64,000 bases of DNA from Yoonia vestfoldensis SKA53 (GTDB lineage: Bacteria; Pseudomonadota; Alphaproteobacteria; Rhodobacterales; Rhodobacteraceae): the NCBI RefSeq assembly GCF_000152785.1, contig NZ_CH672414.1, forward strand, positions 105,432 to 169,431. Direction: 5' to 3'. Positions 17,314 to 40,855 of the stretch are shown in pieces (positions within the stretch are counted from its first letter, which is position 1; each line of letters starts with the position of its first letter). A program made the translations under genes and the position numbers. The notes under the pieces are model-generated. The model made no database searches, had not been told where the DNA came from, and saw only the letters and a list, made by a program, of their open reading frames with translations.

Positions 17314-18546
17314 ATGACAATGATTGATCCTGTAAAACTTGACCGTCTGGCCGAAGTTGCCGTGCGCACCGGCGTGAACCTGCAAAAAGGGCAGGATCTG
17401 GTGATCACCGCCCCATTGTCCGCGATTGAGCTTGTCCGCGCGATCACGGTGCATGCCTATAAGGCCGGGGCAGGGATCGTGATGCCGTTTTTCACCGACG
17501 AAGCGATCACGCTCGCGCGCTATGAGCATGCCGAAGATGCCAGTTTCGACCGCGCACCCGGCTGGTTCTATGAGGGGTTGGCCGCCGCCTACAAAGGCGG
17601 CGCCGCGCGCATGGCGATCACCGGCGACGACCCGATGCTGTTGGCCGATCAGGACCCCGCGAAGGTTGCGCGTCTGTCCAAAGCGACATCCATCGCCGCC
17701 AAACCTGCCATGGCCCCGATTGTCGGGTTCGAGGTGAACTGGAACATCGTCGCTTTCCCCGGTGCCGGTTGGGCCGCGCGCGTGTTCCCCGATCTGCCCG
17801 TAGAACAGGCGCAGGGCAAGTTGATGGATGCGATCTATACCGCGTCGCGGCTGGACGGTGACGATCCTGTGGCGAATTGGGCCGCGCATACGACAGAGCT
17901 GCAAAAGCGTGTCAAATGGCTGAACGACCATGATTTCGCCGCGCTGAAATATACCGGCCCCGGCACCGACCTGATGCTGGGTCTGGCGGATGGGCATATC
18001 TGGAAAGGCGGCGCATCGCCCGCGCTGAACGGCGTGGTCTGCCAGCCCAATATCCCCACCGAAGAGGTGTTCACCTGCCCGCATGCCTATAAGGTCGATG
18101 GCGTGGTGTCTGCCACCAAGCCTTTGGCGCATCAGGGCAATGTGATAGAAAACATCAAGGTCCGGTTCGAGGCGGGCCGCATCGTCGAGGCGACAGCCAC
18201 CAAAGGCGAGGCCGTGCTGCAGGCGTTGTTGAACACCGATGATGGGGCCTGCCGCATTGGCGAGGTCGCCTTGGTGCCGCATTCCAGCCCGATCAGCCAG
18301 TCAGGCACGTTGTTCTATAACACGCTCTTTGATGAAAACGCGTCATGCCACATCGCGCTTGGCCAATGTTACGCAGATACGATCGAGGGTGGCTCGGAGT
18401 ATTCAGCCGAAGAATTGCAGCAAAAAGGCGGCAACCAAAGCCTGATCCATGTCGATTGGATGATGGGGTCGGATGCCGTCGATATCGACGGGATCACCAA
18501 GACGGGCGAGGTGATCCCCGTCATGCGCAAGGGCGAATGGGCCTGA
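17314..18546 (+). CDS. M29-family aminopeptidase
   Basis: A 410-residue aminopeptidase of family M29 (AmpS/PepS/aminopeptidase T), a cytoplasmic two-metal exopeptidase that trims N-terminal residues from peptides. Family features include [14 protein letters not shown], the metal-binding [32 protein letters not shown] and the C-terminal [11 protein letters not shown]. Length fits the family. Two ATGs (17314 and 17320) are close together; the first has a GA-rich stretch ahead of it. It is monocistronic and divergent from uvrB. Confidence 0.92.
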
Positions 18547-18617
18547 TCAGACATCGGCGGGGCTTGCGAAATCCCCGTTTTTTGCGCATATGACATGCAA
18601 CGATGAAAGGGCCAAAG

Positions 18618-18929
18618 ATGCGCGCACGAATCTACAAGCCAGCCAGAACCGCCATGTCATCCGGCATTGCGAAAACGCGGTCCTGGGTGCTGGAACATGT
18701 GGCCGAGGCCGCGCGCAGCATCGACCCTTTGATGGGCTGGACATCGTCCTCTGACACGCAGGCGCAGGTGCGGTTGTATTTCGACAGCAAGGAAGCAGCG
18801 CTGGATTACGCCCACGAAAACGGGATCGAGGCGGTCGTGCAGGACCCCAAATTGCGCAAGCCCAATATCCGTGCGGGCGGCTATGGCGAGAATTTCGCGA
18901 CCAACCGGCGCGGCGCCTGGACCCACTAA
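18618..18929 (+). CDS. Complex I accessory subunit, NDUFS4-like
   Basis: A 103-residue protein of the ETC complex I subunit family, the alphaproteobacterial homologue of the mitochondrial 18-kDa NDUFS4 subunit. It begins [16 protein letters not shown], and the conserved core spans [22 protein letters not shown] and [15 protein letters not shown] to the C-terminal [15 protein letters not shown] 18618 is preferred to one 15 bp upstream because an AAAGGGCC stretch then serves as ribosome-binding site. It stabilises the peripheral arm of NADH:quinone oxidoreductase on the cytoplasmic side. It lies just before the tRNA-Arg gene. Confidence 0.92.
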
Positions 18930-18982
18930 GACGGGTTTCCGCTTGCCAAAACGCCCCAAGCCGCGCCATACCGCCATCAATC

Positions 18983-19059
18983 GGTCTCATAGCTCAACTG
19001 GATAGAGCAGCTGACTTCTAATCAGCAGGTTCGGGGTTCGAGTCCTCGTGGGATCACCA
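18983..19059 (+). tRNA. tRNA-Arg (anticodon TCT)
   Basis: A complete 77-nt cloverleaf. The acceptor stem is GGTCTCA paired with TGGGATC, and the D arm is GCTC/GAGC. The anticodon stem GCTGA/TCAGC encloses loop CTTCTAA with anticodon TCT, and the T arm is CGGGG-TTCGAGT-CCTCG. The CCA end is encoded. The 3' half, from base 19014, is copied at 28858-28904, making this gene the integration site of the element that follows. The gene itself stays intact on the left side. Confidence 0.97.
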
Positions 19060-19060
19060 T
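19014..19060 (+). repeat. attL: 47-bp direct repeat within tRNA-Arg
   Basis: The segment from the anticodon stem to one base beyond CCA is identical over 47 bp to 28858-28904. Imperfect similarity reaches a few bases further 5' (AGCAG, then alternate matches). It defines the left junction and the crossover region used by the integrase. Confidence 0.93.
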
Positions 19061-19681
19061 AATATCAATAAGTTACGGGCGATGGAGTCAGATGAATCCG
19101 TTTTGGGGTTCCAAATGGGTTCCAAAAACCGCTTGCTAGAGGAGGGTCTGCAGGGCCTCAACTATGATGCTTAGGTCCATGCATGCTGATAAGCGGGCAC
19201 ATCATGATGTTCCTTTGGGGGTTACTTTAACCTTTTGTTAGCCAAATCAATCCTCTGACTCAGAAGGGCACCCCCCTAAATTGCCCCCCCCTACGCGTCA
19301 GAACGGCCCTATTTTGTTAGGTCCTCAAAAAGTACGTTTGGTAATTTTGTTCGGGCCCAAGGTCCAAGGCGCTCCGGCCGATGTGACGGGCTTAAGGCAG
19401 GTGGTTCGCGGTGCACGGTTCGAGGAACGCGGTCCTTGGTTAGTAGTTAAGCGAAAACGATTTTACGTTCCGCTTTAAATGCGGGTTGCGCTCTCGAAGC
19501 GCATTTGCCCCGCCACTTAAACTTTCTGAAAATGATGAAGAGGCCTACTGGTATATGTGTCATCTTGGTTTTGATGAGTTTAAAACTGGAAACCACACTT
19601 CAAACACTGATAACTCGCGAATATCGGTCGCTGAACACCATGTATAACGTGAAGTACCCGACCTGAAGCTTGGCTCGATGA
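19061..19681. other. Left end of the element, no firm gene
   Basis: This stretch holds a candidate integrase arm site (19105-19128) and a GGACC/CCAAGG-rich patch (about 19358-19441). Two weak frames lie on the plus strand. One is 65 codons (19281-19478) and is low complexity. The other is 53 codons from a TTG (19486-19647), with a protein-like EEAYWYMCHLGFDEF segment but no ribosome-binding site. Neither is convincing; the second could be a relic. Confidence 0.4.
19105..19128 (+). repeat. Candidate integrase arm site, left copy
   Basis: A 24-bp word starting GGGGTTCCAAATGGG, with a tandem GGGTTCCAAA/TGGGTTCCAAAAA inside. It recurs at 28719-28742 with 21 of 24 matches in the same orientation, near the other end of the element. 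It lies 45 bp inside attL. Confidence 0.5.
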
Positions 19682-20239
19682 TCACTGTGTCCGCCGTAAC
19701 CACCGAAACCCCAGCATCAATATCACCATACAAGCCAGCAACCCGCCAAGGTCACCGATAAAATACGCTGATGCTGATTGGATTTCGAAGCCATAGAAGT
19801 ATGAAGTGCCTGATACATTGATGATGGATGCAAAGCTGCCCGTCATCAGAATTTCGCGCCACGATGTCAACTTTGCCTGCTCTTGACGAAAATCCATGCC
19901 CAGTTTGGCAAACAGCCAGAAACTTGATGTTGCGCAGAAGATACCAAAAAGTGCGCCAAAGAAATAACCGCCAGAAAAACCTGTAGTACCGAACAGATAG
20001 GCATGAGTGAGTAAGGCACTGGGAGCTAACAGAAACAATGCACGCCACCCGTAGAGCCAAGCTGTGAGCACGCGAACGCCGTGTGGGAGGAACAGAATGC
20101 TTGCGTAATGGACAAACTCAGGAAGCACGAGTGTTTGAACTGGCATCAGAACACCAAACGTGAACGCAAATGCCCCCAGATATACAAAGGAAACGACCGC
20201 GAGCGGCAGAAGCCAATCTGATGAAAACGTTGACTGCAC
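19682..20239 (-). CDS. Polytopic membrane protein of unknown function
   Basis: A 185-residue protein with about five hydrophobic segments, for example LPLAVVSFVYLGAFAFTFGVL, then LPHGVRVLTAWLYGWRALFLLAP, a GGYFFGALFGIFCATSS segment and a final GGLLACMVILMLGF before RWLRRTQ. I recognise no family; the second segment is loosely like MASE1-type sensory membrane domains. It starts 9 bp after a small HTH protein gene, so the two form a cargo operon. It is the leftmost clear gene of the tRNA-Arg element. Confidence 0.7.
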   Translation of the reverse strand: MQSTFSSDWLLPLAVVSFVYLGAFAFTFGVLMPVQTLVLPEFVHYASILFLPHGVRVLTAWLYGWRALFLLAPSALLTHAYLFGTTGFSGGYFFGALFGIFCATSSFWLFAKLGMDFRQEQAKLTSWREILMTGSFASIINVSGTSYFYGFEIQSASAYFIGDLGGLLACMVILMLGFRWLRRTQ

Positions 20240-20248
20240 TGCGCGGCT

Positions 20249-20527
20249 TTACCGTTTCACAAAGTAGCGGCCGTCTTGGTGCGGCCCTGCATGTACCAAA
20301 AGGTTTTTTTCCACCAGACTCTTCAGCGCGCGATAGAAGGTGGGCCTGGACATCAGTGCCAGTATTGGTTGGTGTTTGACAACGTCGCTGTGTACCAACT
20401 GCTTGTCGTCCGCCACAAGGCAAGCTGCGTAGTAAACATCCTTCTGTGGCTGAGGTAGCGTTTCAAGCCCTACCTCAACTTCCATCTGCCAGAGCATATT
20501 TCTGAGTGCTGCGATCTTGTGTTCCAA
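20249..20527 (-). CDS. Small winged-helix DNA-binding protein
   Basis: A 92-residue protein. An N-terminal helix (EHKIAALRNMLWQMEVEVG) may dimerise. It is followed by a winged HTH: PQPQKDVYYAACLVADD, SRPTFYRALKSLVEKNLL as the recognition and following helices, and the wing HAGPHQDGRYFVKR. The arrangement resembles MarR/ArsR-type regulators, but I cannot name a subfamily. It lies immediately before the membrane protein gene and probably regulates that pair. The AT-rich non-coding tract with a large inverted repeat lies upstream. Confidence 0.68.
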   Translation of the reverse strand: MEHKIAALRNMLWQMEVEVGLETLPQPQKDVYYAACLVADDKQLVHSDVVKHQPILALMSRPTFYRALKSLVEKNLLVHAGPHQDGRYFVKR

Positions 20528-20669
20528 CGCAGGGTGACCTTTTGATGTGACCTTTGATGCAGAATACTTAAACTGTCCGCGATTTTAAGTCAAAGGGCGC
20601 AAAGTGAGCGTCAACCAAGGCTACCGACAATCTTTTCGAGTACAGCTCTACACCTACCTGCTTCCATCG

Positions 20670-20776
20670 CCAGGGTCAGGACTCATAACCAAAATATGAT
20701 CGTTCCCCCAAGGTCTTCCTGCCGGCAATCGCCCTCGCCGCAACCATCATATTTTAGTTATGACTCCAGACCCTGG
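20670..20776. repeat. 31-bp imperfect inverted repeat
   Basis: Arm 20670-20700 (CCAGGGTCAGGACTCATAAC, then CAAAATATGAT) is the reverse complement of arm 20746-20776 at 28 of 31 positions, across a 45-bp spacer. The arms do not extend further. It could be a MITE-like relic, a replication or packaging site, or a transcript-end structure. It lies in the non-coding part of the element. Confidence 0.75.
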
Positions 20777-21002
20777 GCAGCGCAGCATTCAGTGCCAACA
20801 TCAATCGGACAAAGTACATTTTGCCACGGATACCGCAACGTCAACATCTTCGCGGTGGACTGAGATTAATGAGAAAAAATAAAGATTCGTTATCATACCT
20901 CAAGTCGCCATTTTGCCACAACTGCACGTTCCCTTCTTCTTGTTTTTGAAGGTCAGTTCACGTTAAGCCGTCACGAACGTCACTCTCTTATCTTTGAGAA
21001 TG

Positions 21003-21031
21003 AGCCTGCTGGAATGATTTTCCAGCAGGCT
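21003..21031 (-). terminator. Hairpin downstream of the FG-GAP gene
   Basis: A perfect 12-bp stem (AGCCTGCTGGAA with TTCCAGCAGGCT) encloses a 5-nt loop. It lies 78 bp past the stop of the minus-strand FG-GAP gene. There is no U run on either side, so a role in transcript end formation is likely but not certain. Confidence 0.5.
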
Positions 21032-21108
21032 TATCCACAAAATATCGAAGAAATCAGAGTCTTTAAGAGAATTTTTAAAAATATTCCTAATTCAAGAAAG
21101 AAGTGAGG

Positions 21109-22785
21109 CTATAACACCTCTGCATTGAGGTGTGTAATTAATCTCACTTCATCAAAGCCACCATAAACAACGTTTGCCAAAAGATCGCTCACCCCATCTC
21201 CATTAAAATCACCAACCCGAACCTGATTTAGAGAGTTTGGTTCATTTTGATAAAGCATCAAATTGTTCACATCAATATCTTGGCGGTTCACTGGTCGATA
21301 AACACCACCTTCATTTATGTATATTGTGTGAGACTTTGTTCCACCTAACTGCCAGTACTGCTCAGGTGTTTGATTTTGTATAATGAGATCGCCTCTGCCA
21401 TCGCCATTAATGTCTTCTTTGAAAATTCGCCAAATCGCCGAAGTAACTTCGGAGGTTGATCGGTTGCCAGATTGGTCCGGAGTATACACACTTGTTCTAT
21501 CAACATAGCTACCCCCTTCATTAATGTATATCCCAAAGCCAGACCAGACCCACCCAGAGTTGTTCTGGACATAGTTTCCCACAACTACATCCAGCTCACC
21601 ATCCTCGTTTATATCAATAAGCTCTATGTTGCTAACGCCAGCCATTGTATTGGTCGCATCGTATGCACCAGTCACTTCATTGGCAGTAAAGGTGCTACGA
21701 AATGAATTCCATTCTGCCATTGTCATCTGGTGTGTACCGTAAGTGATCCATGTATAAGATGAGGGATCAAGTGATCCATTAGATAACCCAACGCGAAAAG
21801 CGCCCAGGGCACTAGCAGTCTCTGGCGTAGCGCCATTGTTATAAAGTGGAGAAGTGGCGATCACTAGATCAGCAAAACCGTCACCATTCAGATCTGCAAT
21901 ACGTATATCAGAAGTAACGACACCGTCAAAAGATGAAGGGAGGATATTTGCAGTTCGCTCATATTCGCCGGACGAATTCCTCACAAGCACACCGCGATAG
22001 CTTGTATCTTGGCTGAAGGCCGTAATACCTGATGCTTCGGAAAGGCTGAAAATCTCAACTATACCGTCTCCATTCAGGTCACCAACAGCACCACCATGAT
22101 TATATGTCTCACCGCCAATCGCTACGCCGAGAAACCCTGTTCCACCTTGATTGTAATAGATAACATCGCTTTCAGTTCCATCCCAGTTGCCGCCAAGCGC
22201 GTCAACATGCCACCCATGTGGTGCTGTAAATGCAACGATATCAAGAAAACCGTCTCCATTAAGGTCGATGATCTCTGTGTTACGGATGGTTCTAACACTC
22301 TGATAGCCAGAAACGAGTAGAGTTTCAGAGAAAGTTCCATCACCATTTGATGTCAGAAACTTGGGTGTTGATATCGTATCAGCAAAATCAATTAGAACAT
22401 CGTCTTTACCATCATTATTAAAATCGGCGACTGCATTGACAAAAAGTAGAGAGTAGTTTTCTGATTGGATCGCGGGTGTCATAGATCCTGATGTGAATAC
22501 CCGAACACCATCAGTTCTAAAACCGTCCACGGCGTCGAATTGGGTGTTGATGTTGAAACCTGCAGCCGTGTCAGAGAACACTATCGGATTTATCGGTTGA
22601 TTTCCGCCGGTTTGTCCCTGCGAATAGTTGCTATTAGTATCGTCTGATGATGGGCCGCAGGCTGATACTGAGGCCAGTAATAGACCGGTAGTCGTAGACG
22701 AACTTTTAACGCGATTACCGGTCGCAGAAGCCTTCTGAGTTAGCGATACTGCTGTTCCGAGTACCTTGCATTTCTGTTCGATCAT
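21109..22785 (-). CDS. Secreted FG-GAP/VCBS-repeat lipoprotein
   Basis: A 558-residue exported protein. At least seven calcium-loop repeats of the type D-x-N-x-D-G-x-x-D are visible: DFNNDGKDD, DLNGDGFLD, DLNGDGIVE, DLNGDGFAD, DINEDGELD, DINGDGRGD and DFNGDGVSD. This is the pattern of a beta-propeller of FG-GAP/VCBS type. The start at 22785 has AAGGAAA upstream; the frame is open 26 codons further, but without better support. A hydrophobic stretch TTGLLLASVSAC ends in a lipobox-like VSAC, so it is probably a lipoprotein. It is AT-richer than the host genes and is cargo of the tRNA-Arg element. Adhesion or surface binding is the usual role of such propellers; none is shown here. Confidence 0.82.
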   Translation of the reverse strand: MIEQKCKVLGTAVSLTQKASATGNRVKSSSTTTGLLLASVSACGPSSDDTNSNYSQGQTGGNQPINPIVFSDTAAGFNINTQFDAVDGFRTDGVRVFTSGSMTPAIQSENYSLLFVNAVADFNNDGKDDVLIDFADTISTPKFLTSNGDGTFSETLLVSGYQSVRTIRNTEIIDLNGDGFLDIVAFTAPHGWHVDALGGNWDGTESDVIYYNQGGTGFLGVAIGGETYNHGGAVGDLNGDGIVEIFSLSEASGITAFSQDTSYRGVLVRNSSGEYERTANILPSSFDGVVTSDIRIADLNGDGFADLVIATSPLYNNGATPETASALGAFRVGLSNGSLDPSSYTWITYGTHQMTMAEWNSFRSTFTANEVTGAYDATNTMAGVSNIELIDINEDGELDVVVGNYVQNNSGWVWSGFGIYINEGGSYVDRTSVYTPDQSGNRSTSEVTSAIWRIFKEDINGDGRGDLIIQNQTPEQYWQLGGTKSHTIYINEGGVYRPVNRQDIDVNNLMLYQNEPNSLNQVRVGDFNGDGVSDLLANVVYGGFDEVRLITHLNAEVL

Positions 22786-23083
22786 CTGCGTTGTTTCCTT
22801 CCACCAGTCCGTGTAATCGCTGAGTCTGAGCATGAATGGAGTATCTTTATGATACCGAGTCAAGTCTTTTTTAGGCGAAAGAAGCGCTGATCAAATGCTC
22901 TCAGTCGTAGACTAATTTTACGTCACCCGCGCGAGACAGGCCAAACGGTGCCGACAGCTGAGATGGTGCTTCGCAGGACCACCGTGTGGATCTGTTCCCT
23001 ACGTGGTAGCAAACTCATGGGGCTTAATGCGCCATCACATTTGACGATGGTGCCCAGTTTCAAGGACCTTGGACCACGACCCT

Positions 23084-23125
23084 CGAACCTTGGCCCGGGG
23101 GGCCGTCGGATCATGGACCGAGGAC
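23084..23125 (+). repeat. GGACC-rich repeat, copy A
   Basis: The word starts CGAACCTTGGCCC and ends in a 21-bp core (GTCGGATCATGGACCGAGG plus AC) that is perfectly repeated at 23695-23715. The part between differs by a few bases and one indel. Copy B covers 23676-23715, about 590 bp downstream in the same orientation. Confidence 0.75.
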
Positions 23126-23675
23126 TTCGATATCTGCTTGAGATGGGGGGGTGAGTGCTGCGGCCCCACATTATTGATATAATATAACAAAAGCGCAGAT
23201 CAGGCAAGCGCTGGGGGGCAAGATGCGGGGTTCGAGGTTGGATTACCGTGACCGCTAGGGAGATGCTGGCGGTGGGGGACGGCGCAGCACTCGGACAGTG
23301 GTTTTCGCTCCGTCTAGGAAATCGCGCCCGGCACCCGCGAACACAGCCTAGATTTGCCACCACCCCACCAACGCAACGGGGGTAACTGGAGCCTTTCCAT
23401 CCCCGCGAAAACGCCGCCAGACGGACCCCCACCCCCCCTTTTTTTTGGGGCCTTGCTGTAGGCAAGCGCCTATACTTGTTTGGTCGCCAAATTCTGTCGG
23501 CTGCTTTTTCGTTCGGGTTTGTTGTTGGCGTACAAGTCGTCTCCGTCTGCTCCGGACCGCCCCGTGTATCGGTACAGCGCAGCAGGACCAAGGACCGAGG
23601 ACCGAGGTGCGGGCTGCGCGTGCCGAGCACTGCGATGCCTTGGCCCACATTCCCTGTCCGAGTAACGTGGACTGG

Positions 23676-23715
23676 CGAACTTGGCCCTGAGGCAGTCGGA
23701 TCATGGACCGAGGAC
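23676..23715 (+). repeat. GGACC-rich repeat, copy B
   Basis: The partner of copy A at 23084-23125. It is followed directly by more words of the same flavour (CCTCGGACCGCGG, CTTGGAACTCGG), and a third dense patch (GGACCAAGGACCGAGGACC) lies at about 23584-23602. It ends 90 bp before the HGGxSTG gene. Confidence 0.75.
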
Positions 23716-23804
23716 CTTGCGCCTCGGACCGCGGTTCTTGGAACTCGGCCCTCGACTGCCATCGCAAATAATGTTACATTATAGCAGTCTTGTTGGGGGT
23801 CCTC

Positions 23805-24176
23805 ATGCGGTTTGAAAAAGGTCACAAAATCGGCTCAGCGACGCGCTTCGGACCAGATTGGTCGGGCGAGCGCTGTGGTGCACGAACCAAGGCTGGGACG
23901 CCTTGCCAGCGCCCTGCCGTGAAGCAAACGGGGCGCTGCACGCGGCATGGGGGGAAGTCGACCGGACCGCGGACCGAGGAGGGACGTGCTCGGATCGCGG
24001 CCGCGCAGACCACGCATGGACGGTTGACGAAAGAGGCCCGCGCAGAGGCCACGCGGTGGGCGCAGGTCGGGCGCGAGATCCGTGCGGAGCTGAGGGATAT
24101 CGAGCGGGAGGCGATAGCAGGGGGGCTCTTGGCCAAGGATTGGCGGGAAATGTTCGAACCAAAACCGGACAAGTAG
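23805..24176 (+). CDS. HGGxSTG-domain protein
   Basis: A 123-residue protein. It has a treble-clef-like metal site (CGARTKAGTPCQRPAVKQTGRC, read with the following H-G-G) and then the diagnostic HGGKSTGPRTEEGRARI motif, with THGRLTKEARAEA after it and a charged helical C-terminus (about 80-115). Proteins with this motif are common in Rhodobacterales phages and islands, often near packaging genes, but I know no proven function. ATG 23805 is taken as the start; an in-frame start five codons upstream is possible. It is the only strong plus-strand gene of the element and lies next to the GGACC-rich repeats. Its own codons for GPRTEEGR contain the same GGACCGAGG word. Confidence 0.8.
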   Translation: MRFEKGHKIGSATRFGPDWSGERCGARTKAGTPCQRPAVKQTGRCTRHGGKSTGPRTEEGRARIAAAQTTHGRLTKEARAEATRWAQVGREIRAELRDIEREAIAGGLLAKDWREMFEPKPDK

Positions 24177-24387
24177 TCAGACGATACCAGCCTGTCCCGG
24201 TTGCCACAGTCCGCCACAGTTAATCATTTCACGGATATACGTGTAATAACAATACCTTACGGGGTAGTGCCACGGTTGCCACAGTAATGTACATAACCTT
24301 CCTAGAAATCTAACTATCTGGATAAACAGTTTTTAGGGGGTGGTATGACATTACTGCGGCGACTGTGGCAACTGGGGCAGTTCGAGG

Positions 24388-26298
24388 TCAGAATGGTATA
24401 TCGGCGTCGCCGTGACCGATGGGGCTGGCCGAAGCGCTATCCAAATCAAAGATATCTGCCATACGAAACACGTATACCGACCGCCTAGCACCAAGCACAC
24501 TGACCTTAGTTGTGTTGCGTGATTTATCGCATCGGCTTAGCAGCCCAGCCTCGCGCAAGCTCTTGGCGATCGCACGCTCGGAAGACCCAAGATGGTTGTC
24601 GAGGCCAGATGCAAGCGCCTTGATCACACTGAGGGACGCAGTCGGATCAAGGTATAGCTCTTCGCCATCAACCCATCCAATCCTGGTTCCCATCGCCTCC
24701 GTGCGGGTGCCGGACTGGCCCAGGTCCACGTCTCGCCAGCCCAAAGCCCTCGCATTGTCAGGTTTGCCACCACTGCTGCGCTCGATGTGTGCTTTGCCGC
24801 TGGAGACGGCCGCACGCATGAGATCCACGAAGCGTTGTGCGTCTGAAGCCTCATGATCAATCGCTGACTGGAGGTCTGCGAGAGCGCATGCTGCGTCTTT
24901 GGCGATATCCATAAACCCTTGGGTTACTTGGGAACTGATCTCACCAGCATCGTCTGCAAAGTCAAGGAACACGCGCAGCCCCATCAGAAGATTGGCCAAG
25001 TTGTCCTGTGTCCTTGCGTGTCCACTGGCGCCTATATTCTCGCGATCGATTTCCAGCGCCATGCCTATGAATTCATGAAGCGCATTCCGCTTTGACTCCA
25101 TTGCCAGCCATTGGACAAAGCTTGCCATGACTTTGGCGAGGACGCCGTCTCGAGCGAGCTTTTGCAGCCCACTCAATACGGTGGTGTCTATCGCCCCCCT
25201 CGCCACATTGACGATCACAAGCCGGGCCTGCAACGAATGCCCATTCGGGATGTCTTCACCGGTCGCAAGAATGATGCCTCTCGGATGAAAGGCATTTCTG
25301 AGTTCGGCCTTTGACGTCATGCGGCTGCGGCCTGCTTGATTGCCTTGCGCGCGCAGAAGCCTCTCTGCGTTGGCATGAGTTTTAGCAACCTCGTGCCGTG
25401 TACCGCGGGCGACAAAATCGTCGACGATGAGTAGCGCATCCTTTGCCAAGAAGGCCGTCTTCTCGAGCGCGTTGCCAGTAGACGACCAGTTTGCAGGGAG
25501 ATTTGCACCATCGAACTTTATGCCCCAAAACCCTTGCAGCACGCCGGCGAAGGCCGACTTGAATGTGCCAGTCGTGCCCTGCAAATAGATAGACAAAGTT
25601 GCGGGCATAAAATGGCACAGCGTGGCGCGCATGACACCGCCAAGCAGTACAAGCCCCACGCCGTCCTTCTGTACATCGCGGAATGCGCCCAACAGATCCG
25701 CAAGACCCAAGGTGCGAGGATCAGCAGGCGCTGGCAGGCTGAAATCGGCTAGCGACCCTTGCAGCTCGCACCTTGCTTCTTCGTTCAGCCCTTCGGTCCC
25801 GATACCACCCGAGGCCGTCAAGTACAGCAACTCATCGTCAAACTTAGCCCACCCTGTGTGCTGGCATAGCTGTACCAGCTCGGGATCAGACCGTTCTTTG
25901 ATGGCGGCTGCAACATGGTCTCGGTATCGGCTGCCCACGAAAATCTGGGGACTGGCCCCCCACTCTGTGGCGAGCCATTCGAGACGGTCGAATTCGGAGG
26001 CAGGGACATCGATGGTGGGCAAAGGATTCCCTGTTTCCATTCTGCCCGACACCGTAAAGTGTCGGGCGGTCGTGAGGCCGTCAGCTTTGACGACCTCGCG
26101 CTCGATTTCCGCGGTAAAGTTGCATAAGCGGACAGGTATGGGCTGCTTGTCTTTAACCACCTTAAACATGTGTAAGGCCCCTCCGAAATCTGCGTATTGG
26201 CGCTGCGCTTCAACCGCAGCCTCAGCCACTTCCGCCGTCTGGCGAGCGGCCTCGCTGTCAGCTAAAAGCTGCGCGACGAGTGATGTCCGGTCATCCAT
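24388..26298 (-). CDS. P-loop replicative-type ATPase (DUF927-like)
   Basis: A 636-residue protein. The N-terminal half has the look of DUF927 proteins (LCNFTAEIEREVV and a later QHTGWAKFDDELLYLTASGGIG). A P-loop GTTGTFKS at about 241-248 follows, then a Walker B DALLIVDDF at about 287-295, and a sensor-like RGIILATGEDIPNGHSLQARL. Such proteins pair with primases in mobile elements and probably act as helicase or loader. The ATG at 26298 overlaps the primase-like gene stop by 8 bp, so a start at 26343 is rejected as too far upstream. The C-terminal 150 residues may be a DNA-binding winged domain. Confidence 0.7.
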   Translation of the reverse strand: MDDRTSLVAQLLADSEAARQTAEVAEAAVEAQRQYADFGGALHMFKVVKDKQPIPVRLCNFTAEIEREVVKADGLTTARHFTVSGRMETGNPLPTIDVPASEFDRLEWLATEWGASPQIFVGSRYRDHVAAAIKERSDPELVQLCQHTGWAKFDDELLYLTASGGIGTEGLNEEARCELQGSLADFSLPAPADPRTLGLADLLGAFRDVQKDGVGLVLLGGVMRATLCHFMPATLSIYLQGTTGTFKSAFAGVLQGFWGIKFDGANLPANWSSTGNALEKTAFLAKDALLIVDDFVARGTRHEVAKTHANAERLLRAQGNQAGRSRMTSKAELRNAFHPRGIILATGEDIPNGHSLQARLVIVNVARGAIDTTVLSGLQKLARDGVLAKVMASFVQWLAMESKRNALHEFIGMALEIDRENIGASGHARTQDNLANLLMGLRVFLDFADDAGEISSQVTQGFMDIAKDAACALADLQSAIDHEASDAQRFVDLMRAAVSSGKAHIERSSGGKPDNARALGWRDVDLGQSGTRTEAMGTRIGWVDGEELYLDPTASLSVIKALASGLDNHLGSSERAIAKSLREAGLLSRCDKSRNTTKVSVLGARRSVYVFRMADIFDLDSASASPIGHGDADIPF

Positions 26299-27172
26299 GG
26301 CGCTGGTGCCTCTTTGCAATGGAGCGGACGACACTTTGAACATCGCAGATGTCGAGCGGTGGCTGACAGCACCGCTGGTTGATGTCCAGCAACGCCTTTA
26401 GGGTCTGCTCCTCTGTCAGCTTACGAACACCGAGAAGAAAGCCAGCCCGTCGGGCCAGCGCATTGTTGCGCCCTCCCTCTGCGACGGGCGCGTAAAGTTC
26501 TGGCAAAACGCCACGGCGCGAATTCGGCTTGCGCTTGTCGGCAAGGGTCTGCCGCTCAGCCGCACGGATCATTTTGCGCAGACCGTCAGGCAGGTACGGT
26601 ATACCAACCGGTGCAAGTGTTTCGGGGCCTTCGTAGGTCGCTTTTGTCGAAACACCTAGGGCGAGGCCATAATCGCAAATACCTGGAGGAATTGTGATTA
26701 CTTCGCCCGATCCTTCCACAACAACACCATCCAGTTCCGACAGCGCAGTTCTCAGAAAAGTCTCCTTACCCACGTAGTACAGCATCGTGTGAAACCCACC
26801 TTCGAATTTGCCATCCATGATTGCATCGTAGCGGATAGGGCTATCGCATTGAGGACAATAAAAACCTGCGTTTCGAAGCGCGTTAAGGCCACTGTTTTCA
26901 TCGGAGGTGCTTGCCGTGATCGCCAATAGGCCGGTTTTTGGACCTGTCTTGACCGCTAGGCCAAGGCCCGAGATCTCACATAGAATGAAGTATGTTGCGA
27001 CGGGATCCTTGCGCTGCTCGGGACTGCGAGGGTCAACGGTAGGCAATCCATTTCTTCTCACTTCGACCGGGAAACCCATCTTTACCCAGTTGGCTGCCGC
27101 AAGTGCGACCTCTTCTTGAGGTGCAAGAGTTGATGACATGTGCGGCTGAGGCGAATTGTTTTTGAAGTCCAT
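26291..27172 (-). CDS. Primase-like protein (prim-pol N-terminus, PriCT-like C-terminus)
   Basis: A 293-residue protein. The N-terminal part (ALAAANWVKMGFPVEV, then GLAVKTGPKTGLLAITAS) resembles the bifunctional primase/polymerase domain found in plasmids and islands. A CPQCDSPI segment sits in the middle. The last 75 residues (EGGRNNALARRAGFLLG, LLDINQRCCQPPLD, VQSVVRSIAKR) look like a PriCT-1 domain. The acidic metal-binding motif is not obvious, so activity is uncertain. Its start overlaps the AlpA-like gene stop by one base (TAATG), and its stop overlaps the ATPase gene. Confidence 0.7.
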   Translation of the reverse strand: MDFKNNSPQPHMSSTLAPQEEVALAAANWVKMGFPVEVRRNGLPTVDPRSPEQRKDPVATYFILCEISGLGLAVKTGPKTGLLAITASTSDENSGLNALRNAGFYCPQCDSPIRYDAIMDGKFEGGFHTMLYYVGKETFLRTALSELDGVVVEGSGEVITIPPGICDYGLALGVSTKATYEGPETLAPVGIPYLPDGLRKMIRAAERQTLADKRKPNSRRGVLPELYAPVAEGGRNNALARRAGFLLGVRKLTEEQTLKALLDINQRCCQPPLDICDVQSVVRSIAKRHQRHG

Positions 27173-27366
27173 TAGCGCACCTCCTCTTCAGCTACGCCCA
27201 GCAGCCAAGCCTCGATTTTCGCGAGGTCATAGATCGGCACTTGCCCGCTGCGGGGCAAAGGCTGCGGGAAGCCGCGTTCAGCAGTCCAGCGTAAAATGGT
27301 GGTCTTTGAGACGCCAAGCTCGTTCAATAGCTCGCGGCGCCCGATAAACCGGGTAATGGTCGACAT
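27172..27366 (-). CDS. AlpA-like helix-turn-helix regulator/excisionase
   Basis: A 64-residue MerR/excisionase-type HTH protein: ITRFIGRRELLNELGVSK, TTILRWTAERGFPQPL, then a short wing and IYDLAKIEAWL. AlpA-like proteins in P4-type elements activate integrase or act in excision. It is the first gene of the alpA-primase-ATPase string and is coupled to the primase-like gene by TAATG. The 188-bp gap to the integrase stop probably carries its promoter. Confidence 0.82.
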   Translation of the reverse strand: MSTITRFIGRRELLNELGVSKTTILRWTAERGFPQPLPRSGQVPIYDLAKIEAWLLGVAEEEVR

Positions 27367-27554
27367 GTGTCGGCCTCCTTTTTAAGAGAACATGAATTGC
27401 CGCTTTCGCGAGGGTAGGGCGGCTGACCATCTGCATGCTGTTAGTTGTGGGTGCATGTCCCCGATTTGAGGCAAAACTCGCTCGCCACGATCTAAACATA
27501 GCGCAACACAGCGCACTATGCAATGAATAATTTTTCTAAGTACTTGATTGTGCT

Positions 27555-28715
27555 CTACTTATTTGAATTCACCAAGTTTTCAACAAGCTGCCCCCAAGCA
27601 GCTAAAGCGGCTTCTCGATCCGCCAAATGCTCACCTCTTAAATATACCGCTGTTACACCGCGCACTGTTCCTGAGACGTGGTTCAGGATGCGATCGACTA
27701 CTACCGGCGTGATCCTCAGTTCCTCGGCCATAAATGTTGCCGCGCTGCGCCGTAAATCGTGAAAACGCCAATCTGAGACATGACTGCGGGCGTCGAGCGC
27801 CGCTTTCGCCTTTGAAAAGCCACTGACCGCTGACCGCCCAGTTGTGGTGAATATTAAATCCACGCCGTTCTGTCTGGGGATTGTGGAAAGGAGGGCGAGG
27901 GCCTGCGGACTCAGATGCACGATATGAGCCTTACCGTTTTTTGCTCGCTCCTTGCTGATTATCCACCTTGCGCGGTCGAGGTCGAGCTCAGACCATCGCA
28001 TTCCCGCAACCTCATCACGCCGTTGGGCTGTTAGAATTAAGAGCTGTGTGATGCGTCCAAACGGAAAGCCCATCTGCTCCGCAGTTTCCCAAACAGCACA
28101 CAGTTCGTCTCTCGATAAGACGCGATCTCGCGATATCTCCACGGCGGGTCTTGGCAGCGCAGCTGCCGGCGATGACATGAGCAAATCGCGCTCGATCGCA
28201 AAATTGAAAAATCGGGTGATGAATGCGCGGACACGGTTGGCTTGTGTCAGCTTGCCTCTCTCCGCCACCCGATCAATCACCCGCATGAGATCTGCCTTTT
28301 TGATCTGATCGAGTTGGTGCCGCCCTAGAAAAGGAAGGACGTGAAGCCGCATGGCTTGTTCGACTTGCCGGAAGCTTTTCTTGGCGCGCTGCTCACGCGC
28401 GTACCACTCCTCTACCGCAGTCTCAAATGTCGCTGGCGCGTTCTTACGGCCAAACGTGCCCTCTTGGATTTCGGATAGCGCAAGACGAGCCGCTTCGCGC
28501 GCTTTGCTTAAGCTTATGGCGGGATATCCGCCGAGGGTGATCCGCTTGCGCCGACCATTTTCACGGGTGAGCAACACCCACGACAAAGCACCGCTCGTTG
28601 CTACGCGTACACCAAAGCCAGGTTGGGAGGCGTCAAAGACATCGTACCGCTGGTCCTTTGGCCTGAGCGATCGGATGAACGTATCGGTAAGGCGGACCGT
28701 TGATAGCTTGGGCAT
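27555..28715 (-). CDS. Tyrosine-type site-specific integrase
   Basis: A 386-residue P4/CP4-57-type integrase. The N-terminal arm-binding DUF4102 domain (about 1-85, with LGGYPAISLSKAREAA) is followed by a core SAM-like domain and the catalytic domain. Catalytic residues are visible as R232 (TAQRRDEVAG), H319 and R322 (HDLRRSAAT), H346 (LNHVSG) and Y358 (AVYLRGEH). ATG 28715 is chosen because family members begin PKLS-L-T; a start at 28781 would add 22 unlike residues and cross a candidate arm site. It points away from attR, 142 bp inside it, and is the enzyme expected to have inserted this element in tRNA-Arg. Confidence 0.95.
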   Translation of the reverse strand: MPKLSTVRLTDTFIRSLRPKDQRYDVFDASQPGFGVRVATSGALSWVLLTRENGRRKRITLGGYPAISLSKAREAARLALSEIQEGTFGRKNAPATFETAVEEWYAREQRAKKSFRQVEQAMRLHVLPFLGRHQLDQIKKADLMRVIDRVAERGKLTQANRVRAFITRFFNFAIERDLLMSSPAAALPRPAVEISRDRVLSRDELCAVWETAEQMGFPFGRITQLLILTAQRRDEVAGMRWSELDLDRARWIISKERAKNGKAHIVHLSPQALALLSTIPRQNGVDLIFTTTGRSAVSGFSKAKAALDARSHVSDWRFHDLRRSAATFMAEELRITPVVVDRILNHVSGTVRGVTAVYLRGEHLADREAALAAWGQLVENLVNSNK

Positions 28716-28718
28716 ATA

Positions 28719-28742
28719 GGGGTTCCATACGGGTGCCAAAAA
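28719..28742 (+). repeat. Candidate integrase arm site, right copy
   Basis: A 24-bp word (GGGGTTCCATACGGGTGCC, then AAAAA) matching 19105-19128 at 21 of 24 positions. It lies 4 bp upstream of the integrase start codon, so integrase bound here could also repress its own gene. Confidence 0.5.
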
Positions 28743-28857
28743 TGATGGGCTAGTCTGCATCAGTATGGTACGTAATGGCACATGTTTTCAAGATAAACCG
28801 CTTAAAAATAGTATATTATGTATCAATATGGTGCAGCATGAAACAATATAGCAGATA

Positions 28858-28904
28858 ACTTCTAATCAGCAGGTTCGGGGTTCGAGTCCTCGTGGGATCA
28901 CCAT
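28858..28904 (+). repeat. attR: 47-bp copy of the tRNA-Arg 3' half
   Basis: Identical to 19014-19060. It lacks the 5' half of a tRNA, so it is not a second gene. It marks the right junction; chromosomal sequence resumes after 28904. Confidence 0.93.
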
Positions 28905-28949
28905 TAAAATCAATGTTGCGGCGTTATCGTAGCAATTCTCTTTCCCACT

Positions 28950-29311
28950 CATTGAGCCCCGGAAGCCATGTTCGCGCAGGATCTTCTGATAGTCGTCTGA
29001 ACAATATTGGGCGGATTCAACCGGTCGATCGCGAAGGCACCGCGCTGTTCTTCAACGAACCTGAACCTCACGGCTTTTGGCTCGCGAAGAACTGGGTGGA
29101 TTTTTGAATATATCCCTGTGCTTCTTGAGGATGCGGTTCTCGCGCCGAAGTCGTTCATTCTCCCGCGCAAGCTCGCGATCCGCGGGCGATACCACATCCG
29201 TGTCGCGGTGCGCGGTCACCCATTTGTTCAGGGCCAAAAGCCAATACCAAGATCGTTGGCAACCTGACGCCTTGTTAGCCTGCGTGTCAGTGCAATTCGC
29301 ACCGCATCCTG
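28950..29311 (-). pseudogene. IS3-family transposase relic
   Basis: Three overlapping frames recover pieces of an IS3 OrfA/OrfB pair: DAVRIALTRRLTRRQVANDLG (HTH, near 29307-29245), ALNKWVTAHRDTDVVS followed by the leucine zipper ARENERLRRENRILKKHRD (about 29237-29100), and the OrfB start [17 protein letters not shown] (about 29085-29035). Small deletions shift the frame between them, and the catalytic DDE domain is missing. No terminal inverted repeats are evident. It lies just outside attR and abuts a mannitol dehydrogenase relic. Confidence 0.72.
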
Positions 29312-29313
29312 CG

Positions 29314-29436
29314 ATGACACATATTTATGGTGATTTGGCGGAAAACGCGCGCTTTGTGGCTGCCTTCAAGACCGCATTACGCAGGATTTGGGCCGATGGC
29401 ATGTCTGCTGCGATCCAAAACTATTTGAGCCGGTAA
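29314..29436 (+). pseudogene. C-terminal relic of a mannitol dehydrogenase-family gene
   Basis: The last 40 codons (IYGDLAENARFVAAFKTALR, then RIWADGMSAAIQNYLSR) resemble the C-terminus of mannitol 2-dehydrogenase-type polyol dehydrogenases (GDL-x-x-x-x-RFV-x-A pattern). The rest of the roughly 490-residue enzyme is absent, cut off at the IS3 relic on its left. I see it as host sequence disrupted by that insertion. Confidence 0.5.
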
Positions 29437-29496
29437 ATCTGTACCGCAGCGAAAGTCTGGGCCTTGTGCTTGGACATTGGATGGATTGCCGCGCGC

Positions 29497-30204
29497 CTAG
29501 ATGCTGACCTCAAAAAGGGCGCCAACGCATGCGGTGATTGCCATCGCCGCCGCGCCCCAGAATAGGACCCGTGCGGTCGCGCGCGGTTTCGGGGCGCCAC
29601 CAATGTGCGCACCAAGCGCGCCAAGACCAGCAAGGCAGATCAGTGTTGCGATGACGACTGTCGGAAGAATTTTGTCGCTTGGCGCCAAGATCGCGGCGGC
29701 CAGCGGCAATGCTGCGGCAACGGTAAAGGTGAACCCCGAGGCGATCGCGGCCTGCAGCGGATTGGCTGTATGCACTTCCGACAGGCCAAGTTCGTCACGC
29801 ACATGGGCACCAAGCGCATCTTTTTCACTAAGCTCTCGCGCGACCAAAGCTGCTGTTTTCTTTGTCAGTCCACGGGATTCGTAGATTGATGCAAGTTCCG
29901 CCTCTTCGGCCGCTGGTGTGTCGATCAAAGCCTGTTGTTCGCGGGCAATATCTGCGCGTTCAACATCGGACTGCGAGCTGACAGATACATATTCGCCCGC
30001 TGCCATCGACATTGCACCAGCAGCAAGCCCAGCAGCGCCTGCGACGAAAATGGCTGTGGGCTCTGGGGTCGCCGCCGCGACACCGACGATCAAGGATGAT
30101 ATCGAAACGATGCCATCATTTGCGCCGAGAACGGCAGCACGGAGCCAACCAGCCCGATTGATATAATGCACTTCTTCATGGGCGGGCTCATAAGGCATGT
30201 TCAT
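29497..30204 (-). CDS. VIT/CCC1-family metal transporter
   Basis: A 235-residue membrane protein of the VIT1/CCC1 family, which moves Fe2+ or Mn2+ across membranes. Typical features are the N-terminal WLRAAVLGANDGIVSISSLI, AAGAMSMAAGEYVSVSSQ, a cytoplasmic charged loop with ERADIAREQQAL and ELSEKDALGAHVRDELG, and three C-terminal spans. Length fits the family. A second ATG two codons in is possible as start. It is monocistronic. Confidence 0.9.
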   Translation of the reverse strand: MNMPYEPAHEEVHYINRAGWLRAAVLGANDGIVSISSLIVGVAAATPEPTAIFVAGAAGLAAGAMSMAAGEYVSVSSQSDVERADIAREQQALIDTPAAEEAELASIYESRGLTKKTAALVARELSEKDALGAHVRDELGLSEVHTANPLQAAIASGFTFTVAAALPLAAAILAPSDKILPTVVIATLICLAGLGALGAHIGGAPKPRATARVLFWGAAAMAITACVGALFEVSI

Positions 30205-40121: not shown

Positions 40122-40855
40122 AAGTGGATAAGGTCATTGCGCCAGCACAATCAATCCTTCCGTTGCAGCTGAGGGCTGTGGGCTATTCCGTCGGCAAGAC
40201 GCGGTTGCTGGACGGGATTGACCTGACGGTCAGGGCGGGAAAACGACTGGTTGTGATGGGTCCGAACGGGGCAGGCAAAAGCCTGTTGCTGCGGCTCTGC
40301 CACGGGCTGATTGCGCCCACCTCGGGCAGTGTTTCCTGGCAGACACAAGACCCGCGACCGGCGGCACAGGCGATGGTATTGCAACGTCCGGTGGTGTTGC
40401 GCCGGTCCGTGCGCGCCAATCTGGATTATCCGTTGGCTTTGGCTGGTTATGCGCGTGCTGCGCGTGACGAAATGGTCCAGAAAACCCTGGCGCGTTTCGG
40501 GCTTATCGCGCTGGCAGAGCGGCCAGCACGTCTGCTGTCTGGTGGTGAACAACAGCGCCTCGCACTCGCACGCGCATGGGCATTGCGACCGCAAGTCCTG
40601 TTTCTGGACGAACCATCGGCCGCACTCGACCCTTCGGCGACCCGCGCTATCGAAGACCTGATCGGCCAGTTCAGCGCCGAGGGCATCACCATCGTGATGA
40701 CGAGCCACGATCTGTTTCAGGCGCGCCGGCTCGCGCAGGATATTGCTTTTCTGCACCGCGGACGGCTGATCGAACACGGCCCCGCTGCCCAGTTCTTCGA
40801 CGCGCCCCAGACACCCCAAGCGCGGGATTTTCTGGGTGGCGCACTCATCTGGTAA
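40118..40855 (+). CDS. tupC: Tungstate ABC transporter ATPase TupC
   Basis: A 245-residue ATPase. Walker A is GPNGAGKS, the signature is LLSGGEQQRLALARAWAL, Walker B is VLFLDEPSAALD and the H-loop is IVMTSHDLFQARRLAQD. The ATG at 40118 overlaps the tupB stop and begins an N-terminal LQLRAVGYSVGKTRLLDGI, the usual first strand; earlier in-frame starts fall inside tupB. It energises the TupAB importer. Confidence 0.88.
   Translation: MKVDKVIAPAQSILPLQLRAVGYSVGKTRLLDGIDLTVRAGKRLVVMGPNGAGKSLLLRLCHGLIAPTSGSVSWQTQDPRPAAQAMVLQRPVVLRRSVRANLDYPLALAGYARAARDEMVQKTLARFGLIALAERPARLLSGGEQQRLALARAWALRPQVLFLDEPSAALDPSATRAIEDLIGQFSAEGITIVMTSHDLFQARRLAQDIAFLHRGRLIEHGPAAQFFDAPQTPQARDFLGGALIW

What the first reader, a model, noticed from the sequence alone, without database searches (positions are those of the whole stretch)
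19014..28904. Compact tRNA-Arg element with a satellite-like core
Perfect 47-bp att repeats, int, alpA-like, primase-like and ATPase genes plus an HGGxSTG protein make a 9.84-kb unit with no structural, conjugation or transposition genes. That is the profile of a phage satellite dependent on a helper, and I know of no described satellite with this exact gene set in roseobacters.
Basis: partly seen in the sequence, partly recalled or inferred. Interest (0 to 1): 0.75.

Follow-up and report, generated by a model that had tools for sequence, protein, structure and literature searches.

The report
Satellite-like island at tRNA-Arg
A 9.8-kilobase mobile island sits in a tRNA gene and carries its own integration enzyme, a replication system built like that of known phage satellites and a possible packaging gene, but no recognised virus-shell or conjugation genes, so it probably travels inside another virus's particles; that last step is inferred, not shown.

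Summary
In detail: a tRNA-Arg(TCT) gene and an exact 47-bp copy of its 3' part bracket 9.84 kb with integrase, AlpA-like, PriCT, helicase and HGGxSTG genes; eight ORFs scanned gave no structural, conjugation or transposase family. New here: (1) the helicase model (pLDDT 89) fits SaPIBov1 Rep and SCCmec Cch best in the PDB, and iterons lie directly 3' of its gene, as in SaPI origins; (2) the PriCT protein's PrimPol half lacks the catalytic acidic residues; (3) the same genome has a second unit with the same rep-ori (96% DNA), another integrase and S-layer-like cargo; (4) the nearest species has another element with this att copy, whose TerS gene stands where HGGxSTG stands here (assembly split, integrase out of frame), and TerL follows HGGxSTG in one phage; (5) heptad arrays lie beside HGGxSTG in four of nine places. 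Best reading: a PICI-like, helper-dependent satellite (0.57). Induction, helper and packaging were not testable, and scans of viral collections found no close copy. A candidate variant, not a proven PICI.

The parts
18983..19059 (+). tRNA-Arg(TCT), integration target
   Evidence: ARAGORN; Rfam tRNA 63.9 bits
19014..19060 (.). attL, 47-bp exact repeat overlapping the tRNA 3' end
19105..19127 (+). arm-type-like repeat near attL (integrase site inferred)
   Evidence: sequence
19682..20239 (-). 185-aa protein, membrane-like by eye, cargo; paralogue at G000:C1:995517-996077
   Evidence: (72% DNA over this and the next gene)
20249..20527 (-). 92-aa protein, cargo; beside the previous gene in the paralogous pair too
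   Evidence: no family at E<0.01
21109..22863 (-). FG-GAP repeat protein (584 aa), cargo
   Evidence: Pfam FG-GAP_3 1.7e-24, FG-GAP 5.9e-24; 1 of 72,556 plasmid records matches
23040..23750 (.). block without a recognised gene, with CCNNGGW heptad array; role unknown, packaging site a guess
   Evidence: 23000-23789: 12 motif counts, shuffle mean 0.5, maximum 5 of 500 shuffles; core 23370-23605 found in 1 of 60 genomes, the own one, three times
23790..24176 (+). HGGxSTG protein, C-x9-C-x10-C-x2-H, candidate TerS-like packaging adaptor
   Evidence: NF041373 1.6e-15; alignment; dN/dS 0.21-0.22 against the two sibling copies
24190..24380 (.). candidate replication origin: five GCCAC(A/G)GT iterons (24203-24369)
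   Evidence: 0 of 5000 mononucleotide shuffles reach the top 8-mer count
24388..26343 (-). Rep: DUF927-type initiator helicase
26291..27172 (-). PriCT_1 protein with degenerate PrimPol-like N half
27172..27366 (-). AlpA-like regulator/excisionase
27555..28715 (-). tyrosine integrase (start corrected to Met23 of the listed ORF)
28719..28741 (+). arm-type-like repeat near attR
28858..28904 (.). attR

Best explanation
A PICI-like phage satellite. The integrase recombines att sites at the 3' end of tRNA-Arg(TCT) (anatomy shown, reaction inferred). The AlpA-like protein triggers excision when a helper phage is present (inferred from PICI and PICMI work). Rep, a SaPIBov1-Rep/Cch-type initiator helicase, binds iterons directly downstream of its gene and opens the circle (fold and iterons shown, binding inferred). 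The PriCT protein assists Rep but probably does not prime, so host or helper primase is needed (inferred). HGGxSTG, standing where another element has a TerS, recruits a helper terminase, perhaps to the adjacent heptad array (inferred). The left part is exchangeable cargo.
For: Exact att and arm-like sites. Best PDB fold matches of the helicase: SaPIBov1 Rep 8tch (E 3.3e-14, TM 0.66 by target and 0.52 by query, rmsd 6.7) and Cch 5dgk (5.8e-14); next group at 4.8e-5. Iterons 3' of this Rep in both copies, and other iterons at the same place beside a different helicase. Element with this att copy in G039: integrase 42-46% alike by tblastx, AAA_25 helicase 4e-33, TerS (Terminase_2 6e-8, PHROG 51 1.9e-19) convergent with the helicase. 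In phage vB_BpsS-36 TerL follows the HGGxSTG gene with one 159-bp opposite-strand ORF between; 3 of the 40 phage records listed name the gene TerS. A Rep relative of another family (G065) has AlpA directly upstream. dN/dS 0.28 for rep, 0.18-0.22 for HGGxSTG copies.
Against: No helper known; exact scans of viral contigs for the att and two conserved stretches gave 0, and 22900-24390 has no match in phage records. TerS function of HGGxSTG rests on position and a weak PHROG line (E 0.0014); its best PHROG, 6177, has no assigned function; TerL was annotated in 2 of 7 phage stretches viewed. HGGxSTG also occurs at tRNA ends in G039 with no integrase seen by eye. The G039 element is split over two contigs, its integrase reads in two frames, a 95-aa ORF lies between helicase and TerS, and its helicase-TerS gap shows no clear iterons (no 8-mer more than twice). 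9.84 kb is under the 12-15 kb given for Gram-negative PICIs. No clean empty site.
Confidence: 0.57

Rival explanations
1. An integrative, replicating island without packaging function of its own. It excises, copies itself and spreads by chance transduction, gene-transfer agents or DNA uptake; HGGxSTG has an unrelated DNA-binding role.
For: No packaging family over a curated cut-off in the element. Two HGGxSTG genes near tRNA-Ser ends in G039 with no integrase seen nearby, under purifying selection. Islands with integrase but no transfer genes that are moved by a jumbo phage are described (abstract of PMC12595487).
Against: The TerS gene of the G039 element and the HGGxSTG-TerL neighbourhood in one phage argue for a packaging role.
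Confidence: 0.3
2. A decayed prophage remnant or a dead island that no longer moves.
For: PrimPol acidic residues missing; the right flank begins with sequences repeated in many genomes, probably IS pieces; no intact close relative outside this genome.
Against: att copies are identical, the core ORFs are open, dN/dS of rep 0.28 and of HGGxSTG about 0.2, and the rep copies differ by dS of only 0.045, which suggests recent exchange.
Confidence: 0.1
3. About the heptad block only, not exclusive with the above: the array and its conserved core are a regulatory RNA, a hidden short gene or a selfish repeat, not a packaging site.
For: The core is 88% and 81% alike between the three copies and has no assigned function; five of nine HGGxSTG places have no array near.
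Against: No Rfam family reaches its cut-off there; the array stands beside HGGxSTG in all three elements of this genome and in G034.
Confidence: 0.4

Closest known systems
PICI / SaPI satellites (SaPIBov1 for Rep; EcCICFT073 for the AlpA type)
   Same: integrase, AlpA regulator, pri-rep pair, iterons directly 3' of rep, no structural or lytic genes seen
   Different: 9.84 kb, HGGxSTG instead of a recognised TerS, PrimPol residues lost, no helper or induction known
PICMI satellites of Vibrionaceae
   Same: small set int-alpA-prim, no capsid-remodelling genes
   Different: PICMI primase is DUF3987/DUF5906 and the site is fis (passages of PMC10803314); neither applies here
P4-like satellites
   Same: integrase, AlpA, primase-helicase functions
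   Different: no Psu, delta, epsilon or alpha family found; Sid not searched
SCCmec Cch operon
   Same: DUF927 helicase related to SaPIBov1 Rep (passages of PMC7581432)
   Different: tyrosine integrase at a tRNA, different partner genes
tmRNA islands moved by jumbo phage (outline with abstract of PMC12595487)
   Same: tyrosine integrase island with direct repeats and no transfer genes
   Different: the present element has its own replication module and an AlpA-like gene

Membership tests
Gram-negative PICI (criteria from passages of PMC6092414) | organisation with integrase, replication module, master regulator | tested here: met
   the AlpA match is below Pfam's cut-off but clear in PHROGs
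Gram-negative PICI (criteria from passages of PMC6092414) | no phage structural or lytic genes | tested here: met
   8 ORFs against Pfam, PHROGs, NCBIfam; remaining small ORFs not scanned
Gram-negative PICI (criteria from passages of PMC6092414) | size typically 12-15 kb | tested here: not met
   9.84 kb; the source says 'typically around'
Gram-negative PICI (criteria from passages of PMC6092414) | att site never occupied by prophages | not tested
   at least five relatives have a second att-like copy, partly read; no prophage survey made
Gram-negative PICI (criteria from passages of PMC6092414) | conserved replication origin organisation | tested here: met
   iterons directly 3' of rep; function not tested
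Gram-negative PICI (criteria from passages of PMC6092414) | phage-dependent induction and packaging | not testable with these tools
   needs infection experiments
Gram-negative PICI (criteria from passages of PMC6092414) | terS or a packaging site (not in all members) | tested here: inconclusive
   HGGxSTG by position and a weak PHROG line
PICMI | DUF3987/DUF5906 primase and fis integration site | tested here: not met
   neither domain in the Pfam scan; the site is tRNA-Arg
P4-like | psu, sid, delta, epsilon, alpha | tested here: not met
   none in the Pfam scan of 8 ORFs; Sid has a custom profile only and was not searched
ICE/IME (defining feature recalled) | relaxase or conjugation genes | tested here: not met
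   none ORFs

The most novel reading that the evidence does not exclude
A satellite lineage in this genus in which the zinc-finger-like HGGxSTG protein and the CCNNGGW heptad array are a packaging adaptor and packaging site of a new type, and whose sibling elements carry whole S-layer-like and SapC genes beside a type I exporter, so that phage-driven satellites replace the surface protein that phages meet.
Probability: 0.15. Interest if true: 0.85.

Novelty: new variant of a known kind. Interest (0 to 1): 0.55.

Why it matters
It would bring PICI-like satellites to this genus with a concrete packaging candidate and a defined candidate origin, both directly testable, and it links satellites to turnover of S-layer-like genes through a shared replication module.

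Tried and rejected
Rejected: P4-like and PICMI membership (features absent); ICE/IME (no relaxase family hit); plasmid (no near DNA match in 72,556 records); an Rfam RNA in the element (only the tRNA reached its gathering score). The FG-GAP protein also draws lines named TcdB_toxin_midN (32.6 bits, over its cut-off), CarG-like (28.1 against 28), PliI (below) and NCBIfam XAC2610 (35.3 against 35); except for CarG-like, of which one stretch passes, no stretch passes alone, and I read them all as repeat-driven and claim no toxin or resistance function.

Led nowhere: pattern scans with single proteins (no relative confirmed); viral-contig scans for the conserved core and the att (0 hits); HGGxSTG fold from one sequence (pLDDT 63); sequence search of solved structures with the Rep profile (8tch at 0.008 and 5dgk at 0.024, mixed with unrelated chains, the first at 0.006); a clean empty site (the sequence right of the tRNA differs in the relatives compared); att sites of the S-layer-like array at tRNA-Arg(ACG) (no 14-mer of that tRNA repeated within C1:20-80 kb). 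Four weak helicase hits of the order search (E 8e-5 to 4e-4) are not counted as relatives. Context survey: up to five longest flank ORFs for each of 28 chosen loci out of 64, 139 in all, of which 125 were scanned: five of L084 were left out as a near-duplicate of L083 and nine large ones for the residue limit. 35 of 36 helicase stretches tried passed the frame check.

Changed on re-check: odds of the best reading from 0.6 to 0.57 and of the first rival from 0.27 to 0.3, because the G039 element is weaker evidence than first written (two contigs, integrase in two frames, no clear iterons); odds of the heptad rival from 0.3 to 0.4, because five of nine places lack the array.
Full report
Observation. 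The window is G000:C1:105432-169431 of a 3.07-Mb genome. tRNA-Arg(TCT) lies at 18983-19059 and an exact 47-bp copy of its 3' part at 28858-28904. Inside both ends there is a directly oriented arm-type-like repeat, 20 of 23 letters alike. The element spans 9.84 kb. In 1-kb steps the part from 23 kb on has G+C of 0.53-0.61 and the part from 19 to 23 kb 0.43-0.50, consistent with a core and separate cargo.

Genes. Integrase, AlpA-like, PriCT_1, DUF927-like ATPase and HGGxSTG were identified by profile. In PADLOC only the AlpA-like protein gave lines, the best at E 0.0013. The eight ORFs scanned are those I judged real among 81 mechanical ones overlapping 18000-30000. The left half has an FG-GAP protein and a two-gene unit with a 72% paralogue elsewhere in the genome.

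Replication module. An alignment of the helicase with 35 relatives (A4) gave a confident model (mean pLDDT 89). Its best solved matches are SaPIBov1 Rep (8tch) and SCCmec Cch (5dgk), all four chains at E 1.2e-13 or better, the next group at 4.8e-5. The SCCmec paper states that Cch contains DUF927 and is related to SaPIBov1 Rep, that SaPI origins lie directly downstream of rep as iterons, and that the SaPI primase is not essential (PMC7581432, passages). Here, directly 3' of rep, five GCCAC(A/G)GT iterons lie at 24203-24369, out of seven such sites in the 64-kb window; the top 8-mer count was reached by 0 of 5000 mononucleotide shuffles. The second copy has six such iterons (2 of 5000), and the element at C1:45-50 kb, with a different helicase, has different ones (GTGAAC type; 1 of 5000). 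In the G039 element no 8-mer occurs more than twice in the 953 bases between helicase and TerS. The PriCT partner keeps its C-terminal domain, but where the C1:45-50 kb element has the PrimPol DLD motif (motif recalled), the window reads TAS and its sibling SVY; loss of catalysis is inferred. The sibling still gives a sub-threshold Prim-Pol line (E 0.0015), the window none.

Related elements. The same genome has a second unit within C1 about 62-75 kb, limits not defined, with 96% identical DNA over 2.6 kb of rep-ori, integrases only 26-27% alike, an RTX-repeat protein (22.8 bits, just under the 23-bit cut-off) and a SapC-like gene. SapC was confirmed by Pfam on another unit of the array (2.8e-63), whose DNA is 80% alike to this one; the name S-layer-like is my reading. 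The rep copies differ by dS 0.045. Rep-like helicases: 2 of 99 relatives (own genome and G065 of another family); 5 of 390 genomes of the order (own plus four marginal hits); 59 confirmed of 205 candidate stretches in the species-level genome collection, the closest 71% but truncated, in Rhodobacteraceae bacterium IMCC1909; 5 confirmed of 111 candidate viral stretches. Of 125 flanking proteins at 27 such loci, 11 matched Phage_integrase, 3 Resolvase, 1 a portal and 1 a TerL family (which shows 25 of 82 families). G065 has AlpA directly upstream of a fused Toprim-like and Rep protein.

Packaging candidate. HGGxSTG proteins share C-x9-C-x10-C-x2-H. 47 of 50,697 phage records hold a relative at E up to 1, and 3 of the 40 listed name the gene terminase small subunit. 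I viewed seven neighbourhoods: TerL is annotated in two. In vB_BpsS-36 it follows the HGGxSTG gene with one 159-bp opposite-strand ORF between, then portal; in Bolokhovo seven genes lie between. In three others (HTVC028P, 268TH004, GBK1) the gene is at an end of the record, so the other side could not be seen. In the nearest species, G039, the contig C17 has the att copy (48 of 48 letters), an integrase in two frames, an AAA_25 helicase, a 95-aa ORF and a terminase small subunit convergent with the helicase; the tRNA itself is on contig C11, so that the two belong to one insertion is inferred. This replacement by position is my main reason for the TerS-like reading. Coding constraint is clear: dN/dS 0.18-0.22 for the three pairs of element copies, 0.05-0.21 for four of the six pairs of tRNA-end copies, 0.35 for the PriCT gene.

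Heptad array. The block from 23040 to 23750 is rich in CCNNGGW heptads: 12 counts in 23000-23789 against a shuffle mean of 0.5 (maximum 5 of 500 dinucleotide shuffles); 25 against 0.7 and 23 against 1.0 beside the other two HGGxSTG genes of elements in this genome; 7 against 0.2 in G034; 0 beside one G039 copy. Of the nine HGGxSTG places, four have the array; around the other five the motif lists show none. Of 90 genome matches to GGWCCNNGGNCC, most sites counted on both strands, 44 fall in the three blocks (my count; control pattern 17). A 236-bp core occurs in 1 of 60 genomes searched, the own one, three times; the 60 held 36 of the 56 genus genomes and not G039. Its role is unknown; a packaging site is a guess.

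Helper. A search of the own genome with PHROG family 2, which I recall to be the large terminase, gave one match, at C1:1135043-1135981, not examined further. No resident helper was identified; other phage families were not searched.

Literature. Criteria for PICI, PICMI and P4-like elements come from passages of PMC6092414, PMC10803314 and PMC8628076; of PMC12595487 I saw the outline with its abstract. Searches on satellites with Rhodobacter, Roseobacter or Alphaproteobacteria (listings only) showed nothing matching, and 'HGGxSTG' occurs in no held paper. This covers only the held library.

Verdict. The element is real and by anatomy works like a PICI-type satellite up to replication. Packaging by a helper is the likeliest but unproven last step. 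It should be filed as a candidate variant, not as a PICI: the size criterion is not met, and induction and packaging are untested.

Noticed in passing
G000:C1:33-75 kb (L079, L020, L021), left of the window: Four S-layer-like (RTX-repeat) genes, each with a SapC-like gene, beside what looks by eye like a type I exporter; four integrases are interleaved, and two units also have primase, helicase, HGGxSTG and heptad arrays. Pfam was run on part of them only. Looks like mobile or recombining S-layer cassettes near tRNA-Arg(ACG).
   Followed up: partly
L077:10222-10560, L078:9565-9951, G000:C1:75330-75446, L074:10969-11085: HGGxSTG genes a few hundred bases from the 3' ends of tRNA-Ser(GGA), tRNA-Ser(TGA) and tRNA-Arg(ACG), all four transcribed towards the tRNA; the two tRNA-Ser copies share 593 bp at 87%. 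Strong purifying selection. The tRNA-Arg copies lie next to integrase-bearing units, the tRNA-Ser copies do not by eye. Remnant ends or mini-elements.
   Followed up: partly
L074 (G028), tRNA-Arg(ACG) locus: Another species has the same layout: tRNA-Arg(ACG), HGGxSTG, toxin-antitoxin-like pair, integrase, S-layer-like gene, SapC-like gene (by eye).
   Followed up: no
L045 (G018), L046 (G032): Other stretches between two att-like copies at the same tRNA-Arg(TCT), 8.4 and 6.8 kb, with restriction- or methylase-like proteins by eye.
   Followed up: no
window 28920-29455: Sequence right of attR is repeated in pieces in many genomes, probably IS fragments (one ORF there gave no transposase in Pfam). 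The periplasmic-binding-protein-like gene next to the att copy in G039 lies at 40836 here, so the right flank was rearranged.
   Followed up: partly
G000:C1:1135043-1135981: Single match to PHROG family 2 (large terminase, recalled) in the genome, not characterised; possibly a gene transfer agent (recalled).
   Followed up: no
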